Assembly (NCBI RefSeq): GCF_023715105.1 | Contig: NZ_JAMBNO010000002.1 | Span: forward strand, 186,001-250,000 | Direction: 5' to 3' | DNA from: Hydrogenophaga intermedia | Lineage (GTDB): Bacteria > Pseudomonadota > Gammaproteobacteria > Burkholderiales > Burkholderiaceae_C | DNA length: 64,000 bases | Shown here: positions 38,544 to 45,680 of the stretch, piece after piece | Position numbering within the stretch: position 1 is the stretch's first letter | How the letters are laid out: every line of letters begins with the position of its first letter | The notes under the pieces: model-generated | Database searches by the model: none | The model's input: only the letters and a program-made list of their open reading frames with translations | Told to the model about the DNA's origin: nothing | Translations under genes and position numbers: made by a program

Positions 38544-38550
38544 GGTGGTC

Positions 38551-40806
38551 ATGCGCTGGCTCGGCCGTCGCCCAGCGGGCCTGGGCGCGTGGCTGGCATT
38601 GGCCTTCATCGTGCTGTCGATGGCGCTCACCGCGGCCCTGACCTGGTTCATCGGCCACGCCGCGATCGGGCAGTTGCGGTCCACGATCGGCGTGAACCTG
38701 GCCGAGCTGGCGACGCAGACCGCCAGCCGCCTGGATCGCTCCATGTACGAACGCCACCGCGAGGTGCGGCTCATGGCGGCGCGCCTGGGTGACGTGACCG
38801 ATCCGGCCCGCGTGCGGCGCGAACTCGACACCCTGCAGACCAGCTATCCGCTGTACTCCTGGATCGGACTGACCGACGACAGGGGCACGGTGCTCACCGC
38901 CACAGGCGGCCTGCTCGAAGGCGTCGATGTATCGGGGCGCCCCTGGTTCATCAACGCCCAGCGTGGTCAGGCCATGGGCGACGTGCACGAAGCCGTGCTG
39001 CTGGCCCGCCTGCTCGGCAACGAAGGCGAGGCGCCGCCCCGCTTCGTTGACATCGCGTTCACGATGTCGAACGCCGACGGCAGCCCACGCGGTGTACTGG
39101 CGGCGCACCTGAATTGGTCGTGGGCGCGCGATGTGGAGCGGGCCATCTTCCAGCCGCTGGACGCCACGCGCGCGATCACGCCCTTGATCGTTTCCCGAGA
39201 CAACCGCGTTCTTCTGGGGCCCGCCGACCTCCTGGGCACCGCGCTGGATTTGCCCAGCCTGCGCCAGGCTGCCATGGCATCGGGCAAGGCCACCGGTCAC
39301 ACCGAAGAAAGTTGGCCCGACGGCCATCGCTACCTCGTGGGCTATGCCAGCGATCGCGGACTCGACGATTACCCGGGCATGGGCTGGCGTGTGCTCGTGC
39401 GGCAGCGCCTGGACGAGGCCTATTCGCCGGCCTCCGCGCTACAGCGCCAACTGCTCGTCGCCGGCTTGCTCGCGGCGCTGGTTTTCTCGGTGCTGGGCTG
39501 GTGGGTGGCTCGCTGGATCTCGCGACCCCTGCGCGCCCTCACGACATCGGCCGGACAACTGCAGCAGGGCCAGCCGGTGCGGGTGCCCGTATCGAACCAC
39601 TACGAAGAGGTGGCGCAACTCGGCCAGGCCTTGAATGCCCTCGTTTACCGCTTGCAGGCCAACGAGGTGCAGCTGCTCGAACTCAACGCCAACCTGGAGC
39701 GACGCGTGAACGACCGCACGCAGGAGCTGCGCAAGGCGTTCGAACAGGTGAAGTCCAACGAGCAGCGCATCGAAACGCTCGTGGAACTGGCACAGGACCC
39801 GTTCGTGACGATGGACTTTTTCGGCCGCATCACCGACTGGAACTCGGCCGCAGAGCAACTGCTGGGCTGGAAGAGCGAGGACGTGATCGGTCGCCCGCTG
39901 GAGGAGATCATCATTCCTGCGCGCTACCGCGGACAGATGCAGGCAGCGCTCGCGCACTACCTGCAAACCCGCGAAGCGCCGTTCGTGGGCCAGCGCCTCG
40001 AGCGCCTGATCATCGACAACCAGGGGCGCGAGATACCGGTGGAAATGCGCATCGGCCTGATCGACAACCCGCCGGTCCAGTTGTTCAGCGCGTTCCTGCA
40101 CGACATCCGCGAGCGCCAGGAAATCGAGCGCCTGAAAAAGGAGTTCGTCTCGACCGTCTCGCACGAGTTGCGAACCCCGCTCACCGCCATGTACGGCTCG
40201 CTGAACCTGATGGCCACCGGCATGGCTGGCGAGCTGCCAGCGGACGCCAGGGAGCTGGTGCAACTGGCCAACGACAGCTGCGAGCGGCTGATCCGGCTCA
40301 TCAACGAGTTGCTCGACATCGAGAAGATGGACGCGGGCAACATGCAGTACGACATGCGCCGCCAGCCGATCGAGCCGTTGGTGATGCGCGCGGTGCGCGA
40401 CACCATGGCCTACGCGAGCCACTATGGTGTCGAACTGCGTTTTCTGGCTGGTGCCGACGCCATGGTCGATGTCGACGGCGACCGCATCGTGCAGGTGGTG
40501 GTCAACCTGCTCTCCAACGCCACCAAGTACTCACCTCGCGGCGGCATGGTGGACGTGTCGATCAAGGTGCGATCGGGTCATGTCAGGGTGTCGGTGCTGG
40601 ACCAGGGGCCAGGCGTGCCCGAGGCCTTTCGCGCGCGCATTTTCGAGCGGTTCGCGCAGGCCGACGGCTCCGACCGACGACAGAAAGGCGGCACCGGCCT
40701 GGGCCTGGCGATCTGTCGCAGCATCATGGTGGCGCACGGCGGGCGCATTGACTTCACCAGTGAGCCCGGCCGCACCGAGTTCTTCTTCGAGCTGCCGCTG
40801 GCCTGA
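38551..40806 (+). CDS. Membrane sensor histidine kinase with periplasmic cache and PAS domains
   Basis: 751 residues. First membrane segment about 13-37, a ~270-residue periplasmic double-cache-like sensor (YSWIGLTDDRGTVLTATGG, GRPWFINAQRG), second membrane segment about 305-328, HAMP, coiled coil, PAS (PFVTMDFFGRITDWNSAAEQLLGWK), HisKA (VSTVSHELRTPLTAMYGSL, His538) and HATPase (NLLSNATKYSPRGG, GGTGLGLAICRSI). It carries no receiver domain. Its 3' end faces the glycosyltransferase operon, which contains a stand-alone receiver, 27 bases away; pairing of the two is inferred. Start choice: ATG at 38551 with TGAGG before it; a GTG at 38545 is also possible. Confidence 0.87.
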   Translation: MRWLGRRPAGLGAWLALAFIVLSMALTAALTWFIGHAAIGQLRSTIGVNLAELATQTASRLDRSMYERHREVRLMAARLGDVTDPARVRRELDTLQTSYPLYSWIGLTDDRGTVLTATGGLLEGVDVSGRPWFINAQRGQAMGDVHEAVLLARLLGNEGEAPPRFVDIAFTMSNADGSPRGVLAAHLNWSWARDVERAIFQPLDATRAITPLIVSRDNRVLLGPADLLGTALDLPSLRQAAMASGKATGHTEESWPDGHRYLVGYASDRGLDDYPGMGWRVLVRQRLDEAYSPASALQRQLLVAGLLAALVFSVLGWWVARWISRPLRALTTSAGQLQQGQPVRVPVSNHYEEVAQLGQALNALVYRLQANEVQLLELNANLERRVNDRTQELRKAFEQVKSNEQRIETLVELAQDPFVTMDFFGRITDWNSAAEQLLGWKSEDVIGRPLEEIIIPARYRGQMQAALAHYLQTREAPFVGQRLERLIIDNQGREIPVEMRIGLIDNPPVQLFSAFLHDIRERQEIERLKKEFVSTVSHELRTPLTAMYGSLNLMATGMAGELPADARELVQLANDSCERLIRLINELLDIEKMDAGNMQYDMRRQPIEPLVMRAVRDTMAYASHYGVELRFLAGADAMVDVDGDRIVQVVVNLLSNATKYSPRGGMVDVSIKVRSGHVRVSVLDQGPGVPEAFRARIFERFAQADGSDRRQKGGTGLGLAICRSIMVAHGGRIDFTSEPGRTEFFFELPLA

Positions 40807-40833: not shown

Positions 40834-42240
40834 TCACGGGCCGGCGTTGAGTCCCTTGCGCTTCATCTCGCCCCACTGGGACTCGCGCTGGGTGGCCCAG
40901 CGCCACAGGCCGATCAGGCGCCACCAGCTGTTGAGCTGGCGATAGCCGAAGTTCTCGAGCACCACCATCAGCACCAGCAGGGCCAGTTGCCCCGCACGCG
41001 GGTACAGATGGAACGCCATTTCCTCCAGCAACAGGCCGGAAAACGACAGCAGCACGCCCAGGCCCACGGCCACGAACAGGAAGATCGCAAACGCCTGCCA
41101 TGAAATCAGGCCGAACGACCACGCCAGCACCATGAAGACGTAGCCGCCCAGTTCGACCAGCGGGCCCAGCCATTCGAAGGCCGCAAAGAAAGGGTAGGCC
41201 AGCCAACCGGGCGCTCCACCCCGGCGGTTGAACATCAGGCCGACATTGGTGCTCATGCTCTCTGACAAGCCCCGCTGCCAGCGGATGCGCTGGTTGCGCA
41301 GGGTGAGTCGGTCCTCCGGCGCTTCGGTCCAGCACACCGGGTCGGGCACGAACTCGATGCGATAGCGTTGTTGCAGTGCCCGCAGATGGCGGTGCAGGCG
41401 CACCACCAGCTCCATGTCCTCACCGATGGTCTTGACGCGGTAGCCCCCGACTTCAATCACCAGGTCGCGCCGGAACAAGCCGAAGGCGCCCGAGATGATG
41501 AGCATGGCGTTGAGCTGGGACCAGCCCAGGCGGCCAAAGAGAAACGCCCGCAGATACTCCACCACCTGGAACAGGGCCCACAGGTTGCGCGGCAGCCCCA
41601 CCTGCGTGAGCACCCCGCCTTCGATTCGGCAACCGTTGGCCACGCGCACGGTGCCGCCGGTGGCCACCACGAAGGGGTCGCGCTGGAACGGCTTGACCAC
41701 GCGCTGCAAGGCATCGCGCTCCAGGATGGAGTCGGCATCGACGCCGCAGAAGAGTTCGTGTCGGGCGAGGTTGATGCCCGCGTTCAGCGAGTCGGCCTTG
41801 CCACCGTTGGCTTTGTCGATCACCCGCAGGTTGGGGTGAAGGCGCGAGCGAAAGCACCCCCGGATGGGTTGCGTGGGCAGGCGCTGTGCCACGGCCTCCG
41901 GGAACGGCTCCAGCGCGAAGGCCTCGACCAACGCCGCCAGCGTGCCATCGCGCGACCCGTCGTTGATGACGATGACCTCGAAATTCGAGTAGCTCAAGCC
42001 CAGCATGGAACGCACGGAATCGACGATCGAAGCCTGCTCGTTGAAGGCCGGCACCAGCAGGCTGATGCCCGGGTCCATGCCGCTGTGAACCTGGGGCAGC
42101 TCATCCAGCACGCGCTCCTGCAGGCCGCGCCACAGGCTGATCATCGAGACCAGGTTGAGCAGCAGATAACCGAGGTTGAGCAAAACGAAATAGGCCAGCA
42201 CGAACGCCGTGGTCGCCTCGATCAGCAACGGCACCGTCAT
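40834..42240 (-). CDS. Processive family-2 glycosyltransferase (PgaC/YaiP-like membrane synthase)
   Basis: 468 residues: two N-terminal membrane segments (about 8-40), a cytoplasmic GT-A domain with VINDGSRDGT, GGKADSLNAGI, VDADSIL, the catalytic-base region TEAPED and the polymer-acceptor motif QRIRWQRGLSES, then three or four C-terminal membrane segments (about 330-420). The D, D, D, QxxRW pattern is that of inner-membrane synthases that polymerise and extrude a beta-linked glycan (PgaC, HAS, BcsA). No PilZ domain is seen. It is coupled by ATGA to the HEAT-repeat gene. The sugar is unknown. Confidence 0.88.
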   Translation of the reverse strand: MTVPLLIEATTAFVLAYFVLLNLGYLLLNLVSMISLWRGLQERVLDELPQVHSGMDPGISLLVPAFNEQASIVDSVRSMLGLSYSNFEVIVINDGSRDGTLAALVEAFALEPFPEAVAQRLPTQPIRGCFRSRLHPNLRVIDKANGGKADSLNAGINLARHELFCGVDADSILERDALQRVVKPFQRDPFVVATGGTVRVANGCRIEGGVLTQVGLPRNLWALFQVVEYLRAFLFGRLGWSQLNAMLIISGAFGLFRRDLVIEVGGYRVKTIGEDMELVVRLHRHLRALQQRYRIEFVPDPVCWTEAPEDRLTLRNQRIRWQRGLSESMSTNVGLMFNRRGGAPGWLAYPFFAAFEWLGPLVELGGYVFMVLAWSFGLISWQAFAIFLFVAVGLGVLLSFSGLLLEEMAFHLYPRAGQLALLVLMVVLENFGYRQLNSWWRLIGLWRWATQRESQWGEMKRKGLNAGP

Positions 42241-43319
42241 CGCGCCTCCCCGCCCCACTCGCGCTGCGCGATGGCGTGGCGCAGTGCGTCGTGCGCCGGG
42301 GTACCCGGCGCTGCCAGCGCCCGCAGATCCGGCTCGCCCAGGAACGGCAGATCGACGAGCACATGGGCGCTCGCCAGCCGGACATCGGCGTCGGCGTCCT
42401 GGAGCAAGGCGCTCAGTCGGGGAAGGTCGGCGGGAACCGCGATGCTGGCCATGGCGCGCAAGGCCTGAGCGCGCACACCCGCGTGCGGGTGCTGCAGCGC
42501 CTGCAGCACCCCGTCGTGCCACTCGGGGCCGTGCAGCAAGGGCAGCAATTCGCACACCACCGCCGGCTCCGTGCGCTGTTGCAGCAGCCGATGCAGGCTC
42601 GGCGGTGGCAGGTTCGCGCGCAGGGCACGCGCCAGACGCAAGGCCCTGGGCAAACGGCTCGGGCGCAGGCCCGGCAGATGCCGCGCCAGCATGAGGGCGA
42701 AGGCATCACGCGCATCGGCCATGAAAGCGGCGAGACGGGCCACGTCCCAGTCGTCACGTTGCAATACCGCCGGTGTGAGGGTCTCGGCCGCCCGCAGCGG
42801 GTCGATCTGCACGAGTGCTCGGGCCGCGTTGATCGACAGCAGCGGATCACGCAGCCCGGCCAACCGATGCAAGGCCTCCCACGCCGCTGGATCGCGCAGA
42901 TGACCCAGCGCCAGCACCGCCTGCAAGCGCGCGGGCCGCGATCCACCGGCCAGCAGACTGCGCGCGAAACGGTCCAGGCCCAGGCTGCGTGCGGCGTTGT
43001 TGAGCCGCTCGGCCGCCTCACCGCGAACCGACTCGTGCAGATACACCCACAGCCGCAGGAAGCGCCGGCGCTCGCCTGCGGGCAGCGCGGGCAACGGGGC
43101 GGTCGAGGGCTCGATCACCAGCGACAGCAACCGGGGGCGCCACTGCGCCACAAAGGCCTGCCAACGCCGCTCTTCCCGAAGCAAGGCAAGGCGCAGCAAC
43201 ACGATCACCAGTGCAACGATCACCGTCAGCAACGTGGCCACCACGCCGCTCCAGAGAGCCACCCGCAGGACTGGGTCAGAAACGTCGCTGAACACCGGCG
43301 CCCACACCCGTGCGCACAT
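42237..43319 (-). CDS. HEAT-repeat protein with N-terminal membrane anchor
   Basis: 360 residues. One strong membrane segment near the start (VLRVALWSGVVATLLTVIVA, about 17-45) precedes a mostly helical region in which pairs of helices repeat, clearest in RPARLQAVLALGHLRDPAAW and HPHAGVRAQALRAMASIAVP and DADVRLASAHVLVDLP, i.e. HEAT-type repeats. Such repeats bind proteins; here they probably form an inner-membrane scaffold for the synthase (inference). The start at ATG 43319 overlaps the yaiO-like gene by 44 bases; a later GTG at 43295 is possible. The stop is coupled to the glycosyltransferase by ATGA. Confidence 0.8.
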   Translation of the reverse strand: MCARVWAPVFSDVSDPVLRVALWSGVVATLLTVIVALVIVLLRLALLREERRWQAFVAQWRPRLLSLVIEPSTAPLPALPAGERRRFLRLWVYLHESVRGEAAERLNNAARSLGLDRFARSLLAGGSRPARLQAVLALGHLRDPAAWEALHRLAGLRDPLLSINAARALVQIDPLRAAETLTPAVLQRDDWDVARLAAFMADARDAFALMLARHLPGLRPSRLPRALRLARALRANLPPPSLHRLLQQRTEPAVVCELLPLLHGPEWHDGVLQALQHPHAGVRAQALRAMASIAVPADLPRLSALLQDADADVRLASAHVLVDLPFLGEPDLRALAAPGTPAHDALRHAIAQREWGGEAR

Positions 43320-44037
43320 AGAAGTCGCCCTGGCGCGTTCGGCTGAGCGAGCCGGTGAGCGTCCAGGCGTCGTCCAGGCGCCAGCGCGCCACCAGCGCCA
43401 GCGAGCGCACGCGGGCCAGCGCGATATTGCCCGCGCCGAGCTCGGTGGCCTCGTCGCCGGCAGCGACGATCAATCCCAGTGAGCGGCCTTCGGCCGGATA
43501 CCAGTGGCTGCGCCATTCGAGAACCTGCTCGCTGCGCCCGAGCGCACGCACGGGAGACCAACGCAGGGCGTGGCTGAAATCACCCACGTAACGCTCAAGA
43601 CCGAGATCGAGGCGATCAACCTCGCTGCTGCGGTAGCGGGTGTGGCGTGCACCCAGGTGCAGCAGCCACGCCGGGGCGAATTCGTACTGCAGGCGCCCCG
43701 CCAGGCCTGTTCTGGGCAGGACGCGGTGCGTGGGACTGACCGTCAGCGACAACCCGGCCACCCACGCGGGCGACAACGCGCGCTCGTGCGTGAGTTCGAA
43801 CTGCGTGTCGTCGAGCCCGAAACGGGAGGTGCGGGTGAGTGCGAAGGCACTGAAGTCGCGCGCGCCATGGTGACGCTGGACGCGCAGGCTGTGCTCGGTC
43901 CAGTCAGCGTAGCCGCGGTCGAGGTCACTGCGTTCGGTGGACAGGCCCACCTCCGTGCGGGGAGCGTCTGCATCTTGTGCATGTGCCAGCGGACCTGCCA
44001 GCAGCAGGACCAACCACCAGCCCGCGCAGCGCTTCAC
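43276..44037 (-). CDS. YaiO-family outer-membrane beta-barrel protein
   Basis: 253 residues with a signal peptide (KRCAGWWLVLLLAGPLAHA, cleaved about residue 20). The mature part alternates polar and hydrophobic residues in short strands with frequent aromatic/Arg ends (RDFSAFALTRTSRFGLDD, WLLHLGARHTRYRSSEVDRLDLGLERYVG) and ends in VGAGVQRRF, a C-terminal Phe typical of outer-membrane barrels. The layout matches E. coli YaiO, encoded near a family-2 glycosyltransferase (YaiP). The GTG start at 44037 overlaps the response-regulator stop in GTGA. A role as glycan exit pore is inferred. Confidence 0.8.
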   Translation of the reverse strand: MKRCAGWWLVLLLAGPLAHAQDADAPRTEVGLSTERSDLDRGYADWTEHSLRVQRHHGARDFSAFALTRTSRFGLDDTQFELTHERALSPAWVAGLSLTVSPTHRVLPRTGLAGRLQYEFAPAWLLHLGARHTRYRSSEVDRLDLGLERYVGDFSHALRWSPVRALGRSEQVLEWRSHWYPAEGRSLGLIVAAGDEATELGAGNIALARVRSLALVARWRLDDAWTLTGSLSRTRQGDFYVRTGVGAGVQRRF

Positions 44038-44423
44038 GGGCGTCCTTTCGAGAACCGGCGCAGCCGGGCGAGCAATTCGGCCGGCTGGAACGGCTTGAGG
44101 ATGTAGTCGTTGGCGCCGGCGTCCAGTGCACGCACGATGTCGCTTTCCTGTGTCTTGGCGGTGAGCATGACCACGGGAACGTCGGCCCATCCTGCCTGGG
44201 CGCGCAGGCGACGCACGAGCTCGAACCCGTCCACAAAAGGCAGCATCACGTCCAGCAACGCCACGGCAGGCACCGCCCCGGTTTCGATCAGGCGCACGCC
44301 TTCGCGGCCATCGACGGCGTGCAGCACCTCGTACCCTTCGCGTTCCAGCATGAAGCGCAGCAAGTGGGCGATGTGGTCGTCGTCTTCAACGACCAGCGCC
44401 AGGGGGCGGGTGCTGGCACTCAC
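44034..44423 (-). CDS. Single-domain response regulator
   Basis: 129 residues, one CheY-like receiver and nothing else: acidic pocket VVEDDDHIAHLLRF, phospho-acceptor Asp58 in ALLDVMLPFVDG, Thr in VVMLTAK and Lys in YILKPFQPAELLARL. Without an output domain it must act by protein contact, possibly on the HEAT protein or the synthase. The GTG start at 44423 overlaps the stop of the 58-residue membrane protein in GTGA. The likely kinase is the convergent sensor gene at 38551-40806 (inference). Confidence 0.88.
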   Translation of the reverse strand: MSASTRPLALVVEDDDHIAHLLRFMLEREGYEVLHAVDGREGVRLIETGAVPAVALLDVMLPFVDGFELVRRLRAQAGWADVPVVMLTAKTQESDIVRALDAGANDYILKPFQPAELLARLRRFSKGRP

Positions 44424-44596
44424 AGCAGGCGCTCCATGGCCAGCACCGCAAAGAAGCCAAGTGCGGCCAGCACCGTCCACTTCAGGATCACCAGCCCCCA
44501 GGTGCGGTACCGCGCCTGGCCGGTACCGATGTAGAGGGCGAAGCACACGCCTGCCGCGAGCAGCAGCAGCAGGACGGCCCAACGGAACAGCAGCAT
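44420..44596 (-). CDS. 58-residue two-segment membrane protein
   Basis: A short frame from ATG 44596, 11 bases after the lpxC stop. Two hydrophobic stretches (WAVLLLLLAAGVCFALYIG, residues 6-24, and VILKWTVLAALGFFAVLAM, 36-54) are joined by a basic loop GQARYRTW. The GTGA overlap with the response regulator and the hydrophobic pattern argue that it is translated. No family is recognised with certainty. It is the first gene of the glycan locus and may be co-transcribed with lpxC. Confidence 0.7.
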   Translation of the reverse strand: MLLFRWAVLLLLLAAGVCFALYIGTGQARYRTWGLVILKWTVLAALGFFAVLAMERLL

Positions 44597-44607: not shown

Positions 44608-45531
44608 TTACCAGGCTGGCGTGAGTTGCGCGAAGCCGCGCGGCGCCTCGCGATCGTTCTCGAAACTCACGACCTCGTAGGCCTCGGGCCGCGCCAGCAA
44701 TGCCCGCAGCAGCTGGTTGTTCATGGCGTGGCCACTGCGGAAGGCGCTGTAGGCGGCGAGCAGGGGTTTGCCCACGATGTGCAGGTCACCCATGGCGTCG
44801 AGGATCTTGTGCTTGGCGAATTCATCGCCGTAGCGCAGCCCGTCGGCGTTGAGCACCTTCACGTCGTCCATCACGATGGCGTTGTCCAGGCCGCCGCCCA
44901 GCGCCAGGCCGTGGGAACGCATCATCTCCACGTCCTTGGTGAAGCCGAAGGTGCGTGCTCGCGCGATCTCACGCGCGTAGTTGCCGCTGCCGAGGTCGAA
45001 CTCCACACGCTGGCCCGACGCGTTCACCGCGGGGTGGTCGAACTCGATCTCGAAGGCGAGCTTGTAGCCGTGGTACGGCTCGAGACGCGCCCACTTGAGG
45101 CTGCGGCCTTCGCCTTCGCGCACCTCCACCGGCTGCGTGACACGGATGAAGCGCTTGGGCGCGTTCTGCGCCACGATGCCGGCGCTTTGCAGCAGGTAGA
45201 CGAAGGAAGCCGAGGAGCCATCGAGGATGGGCACCTCTTCGGCGGTGATGTCGATCAACAGGTTGTCCAACCCGAGGCCGGCACAGGCGCTCATGAGGTG
45301 CTCGATGGTGTGCACCTTGGCGCCGCCGTTGGAGATGGTGGAAGCCAGGCGGGTGTCGCTCACCGCAGTGGCGTTGACGGGGATGTCCACGGGCTGCGGC
45401 AGGTCGACGCGGCGGAACACGATGCCGGTGTCGGGCGCGGCCGGGCGCAGCGTCAGCTCCACGCGCTGACCGCTGTGCAGGCCGACGCCCACCGCCTTGG
45501 TCAGTGATTTGAGGGTGCGTTGCGCAAGCAT
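44608..45531 (-). CDS. lpxC: UDP-3-O-acyl-N-acetylglucosamine deacetylase LpxC
   Basis: 307-residue zinc enzyme of the committed step of lipid A synthesis. Start [21 protein letters not shown]; zinc ligands in [17 protein letters not shown] and in [12 protein letters not shown]; catalytic Glu in [14 protein letters not shown]; general-base His in FRSGHAMNN. It lies at the end of the dcw cluster as in many proteobacteria, but 414 bases after ftsZ with a repeat element between. The start at 45531 is six bases after TACAAT, without a ribosome site. Confidence 0.97.
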
Positions 45532-45537
45532 TCCCGG

Positions 45538-45543
45538 ATTGTA
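45538..45543 (-). promoter_or_regulatory. -10-like hexamer six bases before lpxC
   Basis: TACAAT on the minus strand, then CCGGGA and ATG. It would give lpxC its own, leaderless transcript separate from ftsZ. Confidence 0.45.
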
Positions 45544-45680
45544 GGTTTTTCCCCTGTGGAACACGGTGAGAAATGGTGATGGGCTTGATAGGGGGGGGCG
45601 GTTGTGTGCTCCGTCCGCTTCCTGGGTTGTTGTTGTGATCTCCGGCGGGTCCGGTCGTCGCCGACCGGTATCCGGCTCCG

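What the first reader, a model, noticed from the sequence alone, without database searches (positions are those of the whole stretch)
40834..44596. Coupled glycan synthesis/export locus with its own receiver and a facing sensor kinase
Seen: five minus-strand genes joined by GTGA, GTGA, a 44-base overlap and ATGA: a 58-residue membrane protein, a stand-alone receiver, a signal-peptide beta-barrel of YaiO type, an anchored HEAT-repeat protein and a processive GT2 synthase with D, D, D, QxxRW motifs. A cache-HAMP-PAS kinase (38551-40806) ends 27 bases from the synthase stop. Known: YaiO and a GT2 (YaiP) lie close together in E. coli; Pga and Bcs systems pair a GT2 synthase with an outer-membrane pore. 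Inferred: the genes build a secretion machine whose synthase or scaffold is switched by the phosphorylated receiver, without a PilZ domain or DNA-binding output. The HEAT protein would replace a TPR scaffold such as that of PgaA.
Basis: partly seen in the sequence, partly recalled or inferred. Interest (0 to 1): 0.78.

Follow-up and report, generated by a model that had tools for sequence, protein, structure and literature searches.

The report
Receiver-HEAT-glycosyltransferase polysaccharide export module
A small gene set pairs a membrane sugar-polymer synthase with a helical-repeat anchor protein and, often, a phosphorylation-type signal receiver; it recurs in several bacterial phyla and looks like an undescribed way of switching surface-polysaccharide production on and off.

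Summary
The anatomy is real. Four minus-strand genes overlap: receiver (REC), YaiO barrel, HEAT protein, GT2 synthase. A sensor kinase faces them, 27 bases away. HEAT adjoins the GT2 in 80 of 88 GT2-centred loci (3 of 8 misses are contig ends), from Proteobacteria and Bacteroidota to a cyanobacterium and Bacillota; REC is near 59, YaiO 51. None of 21 Bacillota-type loci has YaiO, but 11 keep REC-HEAT-GT2, so the core is signalling plus synthesis, not export. HEAT is predicted cytoplasmic in 78 of 80, so it cannot replace PgaA's periplasmic scaffold; it sits where PgaD would. YaiO models as a 14-strand barrel. The kinase family faces the operon at other genomic sites too; in 8 of 9 operon-less genus members that keep the gene, its catalytic half is gone. 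Against: REC is missing near 29 of 88 loci, and this kinase type in 9 of 11 GT2-bearing order genomes. Best reading: a receiver-gated polysaccharide synthase. Polymer and physical contacts are unproven.

The parts
40834..42240 (-). GT2 polysaccharide synthase, 468 aa, one N-terminal and at least two C-terminal hydrophobic stretches, D/D/D/QxxRW
42237..43319 (-). membrane-anchored HEAT-repeat protein, 360 aa; one TM stretch (residues 26-44) inside a long helix (14-69), then a predicted cytoplasmic alpha-solenoid
   Evidence: AlphaFold2 pLDDT 95.0
43276..44037 (-). YaiO-family outer-membrane barrel, 253 aa, signal-like N-terminus (by reading), 14 predicted strands
44034..44423 (-). stand-alone receiver, 129 aa, phosphoacceptor Asp, Thr and Lys present, no output domain found
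38545..40806 (+). facing sensor kinase, 753 aa, Cache-HAMP-PAS-HisKA-HATPase; likely the cognate kinase (inferred)
44420..44596 (-). 58-aa protein with two TM stretches: neighbour, NOT part of the module; constant companion of lpxC in the genus
44608..45564 (-). lpxC (my label from recall; start probably inside, at MLAQ): fixed left border of the variable interval

Best explanation
This is a synthase-dependent polysaccharide assembly and export cassette whose switch is a two-component receiver rather than a built-in c-di-GMP domain. Shown: the four genes overlap; HEAT-GT2 is a conserved pair across phyla; most receivers keep their phosphorylation residues; HEAT is predicted to be anchored by one TM helix with its solenoid in the cytoplasm, where the receiver and (by general knowledge of the family) the GT2 active site also are; YaiO is predicted to be a 14-strand barrel; one kinase family faces the operon at different genomic sites. 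Inferred: the Cache kinase senses a periplasmic signal and phosphorylates the receiver; the receiver, in one phosphorylation state, docks on the HEAT solenoid; HEAT contacts the GT2 and turns polymerisation on or off, the job that PgaD plus c-di-GMP does for PgaC; the polymer leaves through the GT2 and then YaiO.
For: HEAT directly beside GT2 in 80 of 88 GT2-centred loci and all four genes in 8 of 8 further family loci; REC near 59 of 88; among 21 Bacillota-type loci 0 have YaiO and 11 have REC with HEAT-GT2. HEAT C-terminus inside by charge rule in 78 of 80. Receiver Asp in 78, Thr/Ser in 78, Lys in 79 of 84 aligned domains. In L036, L063 and L076 the REC position is held by a protein with GGDEF and two REC stretches. 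A kinase of the P0005 family faces the operon in 13 loci; of these only the window and L100 have lpxC, fts or ruvC genes nearby, and the nine others plus L118 and L119 show none. A kinase-like ORF lies within -8/+6 kb in 38 of 88 loci. In 8 of 9 same-genus genomes that keep a relative of the kinase gene but lack the operon, HisKA and HATPase are missing. Models: HEAT pLDDT 95.0, YaiO 92.8.
Against: REC was not found near 29 of 88 loci, including HEAT-GT2 loci without REC or YaiO (L031, L105, L106, L107) and gut-type Firmicutes, so REC is not obligatory; some misses are contig ends or counting rules (for example L042, L044, L048, L064, L068, L091). The P0005-type kinase (E 1e-130) is absent from 9 of the 11 order genomes with a GT2 hit, so where kinases occur they differ between lineages. 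No REC-HEAT fusion was listed. G025 keeps a full kinase without the operon at this site, and G090 has two kinase copies without a GT2 hit at 1e-60. The stubs fall in two groups of four, so they may be one or two events. No interaction was modelled. Correlated trees (r 0.83-0.93) are also expected from shared descent alone. YaiO's nearest solved folds are uptake channels. The locus is patchy: GT2 in 10 of 299 family genomes, own genome included.
Confidence: 0.55

Rival explanations
1. c-di-GMP is still the direct signal: HEAT-GT2 binds it, and the receiver only controls a diguanylate cyclase (in one protein with it in some Bacillota, encoded elsewhere in the window's organism).
For: Proteins with GGDEF and two REC stretches directly upstream of HEAT-GT2 in L036, L063 and L076; the GG[D/E]EF motif itself is present in L063, L069, L076 and L080 but not in L036; PgaC-PgaD is c-di-GMP controlled (passage in PMC7112194).
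Against: In 55 of the 59 REC genes found no GG[D/E]EF motif occurs; most are lone receivers of about 120-160 aa, among them five Clostridium loci (L032-L035, L085). No PilZ or other known c-di-GMP domain in the six window proteins.
Confidence: 0.2
2. The receiver is a relay or phosphate sink for a pathway unrelated to the synthase; it is co-transcribed for convenience and HEAT is a plain assembly scaffold.
For: REC not found near 29 of 88 loci; stand-alone receivers often act as relays (general knowledge).
Against: REC beside HEAT-GT2 recurs across phyla with differing other genes, including loci without YaiO (L017, L022, L032-L035); in Comamonadaceae and Oxalobacteraceae the kinase goes with the operon.
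Confidence: 0.15
3. The GT2 product is not an exported polymer but a short or lipid-linked envelope glycan; YaiO is an uptake porin that happens to be co-inherited.
For: YaiO's nearest solved folds are channels of the FadL, Omp33, OmpG and CymA type; the polymer is unknown; no modification enzyme among the window proteins scanned.
Against: PgaC/HAS/CelA-like GT2 with QxxRW and C-terminal hydrophobic stretches; TPR fused to YaiO in Mesorhizobium L039, as in known exporters; BcsC and PelB also appear lower in the Foldseek list.
Confidence: 0.1

Closest known systems
PgaABCD / IcaADBC (PNAG)
   Same: GT2 synthase of the PgaC kind with a membrane partner encoded beside it; barrel with TPR in some relatives of the window's system
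   Different: 137 bits against a PgaC cut-off of 422; no PgaB or PgaD among the six proteins scanned; partner is a HEAT solenoid; receiver beside it; barrel of 14 predicted strands and no TPR in the window
Bcs, Alg and Pel synthase-dependent systems
   Same: inner-membrane synthase, cytosolic control element, outer-membrane channel
   Different: control element in those is a c-di-GMP receptor (PilZ or PelD, recalled); here no such domain was found, but receiver plus HEAT
E. coli yaiS-yaiP-yaiX-yaiO
   Same: YaiO barrel near a glycosyltransferase
   Different: the K-12 locus as annotated has no receiver and no HEAT gene
PleD/WspR-type receiver-GGDEF proteins (recalled)
   Same: proteins with REC and GGDEF take the receiver's place in L036, L063 and L076
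   Different: the window's receiver has no output domain

Membership tests
synthase-dependent exopolysaccharide system (definition: PMC7112194, passages) | inner-membrane polysaccharide synthase | tested here: met
   GT2 with D/D/D/QxxRW and hydrophobic stretches; enzyme activity not tested
synthase-dependent exopolysaccharide system | regulatory domain or co-polymerase that binds c-di-GMP | tested here: inconclusive
   no PilZ or other known c-di-GMP domain found by Pfam; the neighbour is HEAT plus receiver; binding itself not tested
synthase-dependent exopolysaccharide system | periplasmic modification enzymes | tested here: inconclusive
   none among the window proteins scanned; unassigned proteins of about 540 and 710 aa lie beside the module in Oxalobacteraceae and Clostridia, with no Pfam match or PDB sequence match
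synthase-dependent exopolysaccharide system | outer-membrane pore with periplasmic TPR | tested here: inconclusive
   14-strand barrel predicted; no TPR in the window, TPR fused to YaiO in L039
PgaC/IcaA (TIGR03937) | score above the curated cut-off of 422 bits | tested here: not met
   137 bits
YaiO outer-membrane barrel (TIGR04390 / PF19413) | score above curated cut-offs and a barrel fold | tested here: met
   148.7 against 32 and 67 against 23.9 bits; 14 strands in the model
stand-alone response regulator | receiver with phosphoacceptor Asp, no output domain | tested here: met

The most novel reading that the evidence does not exclude
A cross-phylum family of polysaccharide synthases that are gated after translation by a phosphorylated stand-alone receiver acting through a cytoplasmic, membrane-anchored HEAT solenoid: a two-component counterpart of c-di-GMP control, with the export barrel added only in bacteria that have an outer membrane.
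Probability: 0.45. Interest if true: 0.8.

Novelty: new variant of a known kind. Interest (0 to 1): 0.62.

Why it matters
Gram-negative synthase-dependent exopolysaccharide systems are described as typically having a c-di-GMP-binding regulator (PMC7112194, passages). A conserved receiver-HEAT-GT2 module would be another route, joining two-component signalling directly to a synthase, in bacteria with and without an outer membrane. It predicts a matrix polymer not yet described, gives HEAT proteins a regulatory role in glycan assembly, and offers a hypothesis for the YaiO family. It can be tested with single-gene deletions and receiver Asp mutants.

Tried and rejected
The 58-aa gene as a PgaD-like subunit: rejected, it follows lpxC in genomes without the operon. 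HEAT as a periplasmic replacement for the PgaA TPR: rejected by predicted topology. Membership in PgaC: rejected by score. Search for REC-HEAT fusions: none by the Pfam column among 75 and 98 HEAT homologues; both searches scored only the 7,995 candidates sharing most words and limit length, so HEAT-GT2 fusions (about 830 aa) were probably out of reach. Accessory proteins of about 540 and 710 aa in relatives: no Pfam match and no PDB sequence match; I suspect glycoside hydrolases from reading the sequences only. HEAT fold search: only generic repeat proteins, best query-normalised TM 0.47 among the 50 rows shown. Tree correlations are weak evidence because descent alone gives them. Literature: searches (listings only; CC-licensed PMC papers, most subscription journals missing) showed no paper on this module; one search listed 30 of 61 papers and one search listed 25 of 1,446, so they were not gone through in full. 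One search was a listing only. One paper, PMC7112194, was seen as passages. I could not model complexes (single-chain prediction only, both jobs used).
Full report
What is there. On the minus strand: 58-aa membrane protein (44596-44420), receiver (44423-44034), YaiO barrel (44037-43276), HEAT protein (43319-42237) and GT2 (42240-40834), each overlapping the next. On the plus strand the kinase (38545-40806) ends 27 bases from the GT2 stop. Pfam and NCBIfam give Response_reg, YaiO, HEAT_2, GT2, and HAMP-PAS-HisKA-HATPase with dCache_1 just under its cut-off (44.2 of 45 bits). No PilZ and no DNA-binding domain was found in these proteins.

What does not belong. The genes before the 58-aa gene are lpxC, ftsZ and ftsA (labels from recall). 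A search of 40 same-genus genomes found lpxC in 37 (own genome and G001 included), 30 of them kept as loci. I fetched the region beyond lpxC from the 28 of these other than the window's genome and G001. All 28 have the 58-aa gene next to lpxC and none has HEAT, GT2, YaiO or REC in the fetched stretch. The 58-aa gene is therefore a fixed companion of lpxC. The glycan genes stand behind it, and the receiver's start codon overlaps its stop in the window and in G001. G001 is the only one of 35 other same-genus genomes with a strong HEAT match; G013 has a weak one at E 6.4e-4. The interval between this gene and ruvC is variable: in L156-L158 it holds other, unassigned ORFs, in L167, L174 and L176 almost nothing.

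The conserved unit. A scan of genome contigs with the GT2 kept 80 loci of 148 confirmed relatives; the query was the GT2 alone, so neighbours are independent evidence. Adding the window and seven fetched loci (L100, L103-L108) makes 88. The HEAT gene lies directly before the GT2 in 80 of 88; of the eight misses, L042, L068 and L091 begin at the contig edge, and in L083, L086, L089, L093 and L094 no HEAT was detected. REC is found in 59 and YaiO in 51. Some REC misses are contig ends or my counting rules (L044, L048, L064 among them). Eight more family loci fetched later (L118-L125) all have REC, YaiO, HEAT and GT2. Record titles of carriers include Beta-, Gamma- and Alphaproteobacteria, Bacteroidetes, Neomarinimicrobiota, one cyanobacterium (HEAT-GT2 only), MAGs labelled Nitrospirae and Acidobacteria, Clostridia, Bacilli and Halanaerobacter. 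By title I count 21 loci from Bacillota and Halanaerobacter: none has YaiO and 11 have REC. Halanaerobacter is usually described as having an outer membrane (recalled), so absence of YaiO is not strictly tied to a single membrane. In L036, L063 and L076 the receiver gene also carries GGDEF and two REC stretches; Hpt passes its cut-off in L076 and is weak in L063. In Mesorhizobium L039 YaiO carries an N-terminal TPR array while HEAT is a separate gene; the other Mesorhizobium YaiO ORFs mostly have like length but were not scanned. Prevalence is low: GT2 at E of 1e-60 or better in 11 of 150 order genomes and 10 of 299 family genomes, own genome included in both.

The kinase. Relatives of this kinase face the operon, ends together, in Ramlibacter, Noviherbaspirillum, Pseudoduganella, Massilia and two more family genomes: 13 loci with the window and G001. 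In the Oxalobacteraceae and in L119 another ORF lies between. Only the window and G001 have lpxC, fts or ruvC genes near; the nine others tested, and L118 and L119, show none within the flanks held, so the pairing holds at different sites. In two Pseudoduganella loci (L017, L022) YaiO was not found but the kinase is there. Of the 28 operon-less genus genomes, nine keep a relative of this gene beside the 58-aa gene. In eight, HisKA and HATPase are missing and only Cache-HAMP-PAS remains, ending just after the PAS; in one (G025) the kinase is whole. HEAT was searched genome-wide in seven of the eight stub genomes and in G025, with no match; G480 was not searched. The tree puts the operon-less genus genes inside a supported 14-row group (100/98) whose other members face the operon, although stubs fill only 29-48% of the columns. 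The simplest reading is that the kinase came with the operon and lost its catalytic half when its target was lost. The stubs form two groups, so this may be one or two events. Against a strict pairing: G025; two kinase copies in G090, which has no GT2 hit at 1e-60; and the absence of this kinase type (E 1e-130) from 9 of the 11 order genomes with the GT2. Elsewhere other kinases lie near the module: 38 of 88 loci have a kinase-like ORF within -8/+6 kb, and four of the later loci (L103, L122, L123, L124) have one directly after the GT2 on the same strand.

How it likely works. The receiver, the HEAT solenoid and the GT2 active site would all be in the cytoplasm. Loci without an exporter still keep REC-HEAT-GT2. 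I therefore infer that the receiver acts on the synthase through HEAT, the place PgaD fills for PgaC, and that YaiO is the add-on exporter of outer-membrane bacteria. Shown: gene order, conservation, residues, predicted topology and folds. Not shown: contacts, phosphotransfer, polymer, export. The main rival is c-di-GMP control through the GGDEF proteins seen in some Bacillota. Tree correlations (r 0.83-0.93, 0 of 500 label shuffles as high) fit co-inheritance but prove no contact.

Comparison with known systems. By the definition in PMC7112194 (passages) a Gram-negative synthase-dependent system typically has a synthase, a c-di-GMP-binding regulator or co-polymerase, periplasmic modification enzymes and a TPR-pore. 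The first is met; the others are inconclusive here. It works like such a system, but I do not file it under Pga (score test failed) or under the E. coli yai locus (no receiver or HEAT). The literature searches named in Tried and rejected found no description; most subscription journals are not covered.

Verdict. It is a new variant of a known kind, of fairly high interest because it spans phyla and is directly testable.

Noticed in passing
L161-L164, L166, L168, L172, L175 (beside the lpxC-linked 58-aa gene): Eight same-genus genomes carry a Cache-HAMP-PAS protein of roughly 520 aa that has lost HisKA and HATPase, apparently kinase remnants after operon loss, in two groups with different ends.
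   Followed up: partly
L156, L157, L158, between the 58-aa gene and ruvC: The lpxC-ruvC interval is variable in the genus; G022 (L156) has two large unassigned ORFs there (880 and 919 aa).
   Followed up: no
window 44420-44596: A 58-aa protein of unknown function with two TM stretches is a constant neighbour of lpxC in the genus (28 of 28 operon-less genomes) and may bear on lipid A synthesis.
   Followed up: partly
L018:9399-11015, L036:3126-5258: Unassigned proteins of 538 and 710 aa beside the module in Oxalobacteraceae and Clostridia, with no Pfam or PDB sequence match; possibly glycoside hydrolases by eye.
   Followed up: partly
L045:3934-5217, L037:1-1317: Neomarinimicrobiota loci have a longer receiver protein before HEAT-GT2; the one of L045 has two REC stretches and a middle part that looks to me like a degenerate GGDEF, which Pfam did not call.
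   Followed up: no
L048:2463-5045: In one Mesorhizobium amorphae locus kinase and receiver are one ORF, whereas the second strain (L049) has them apart.
   Followed up: no
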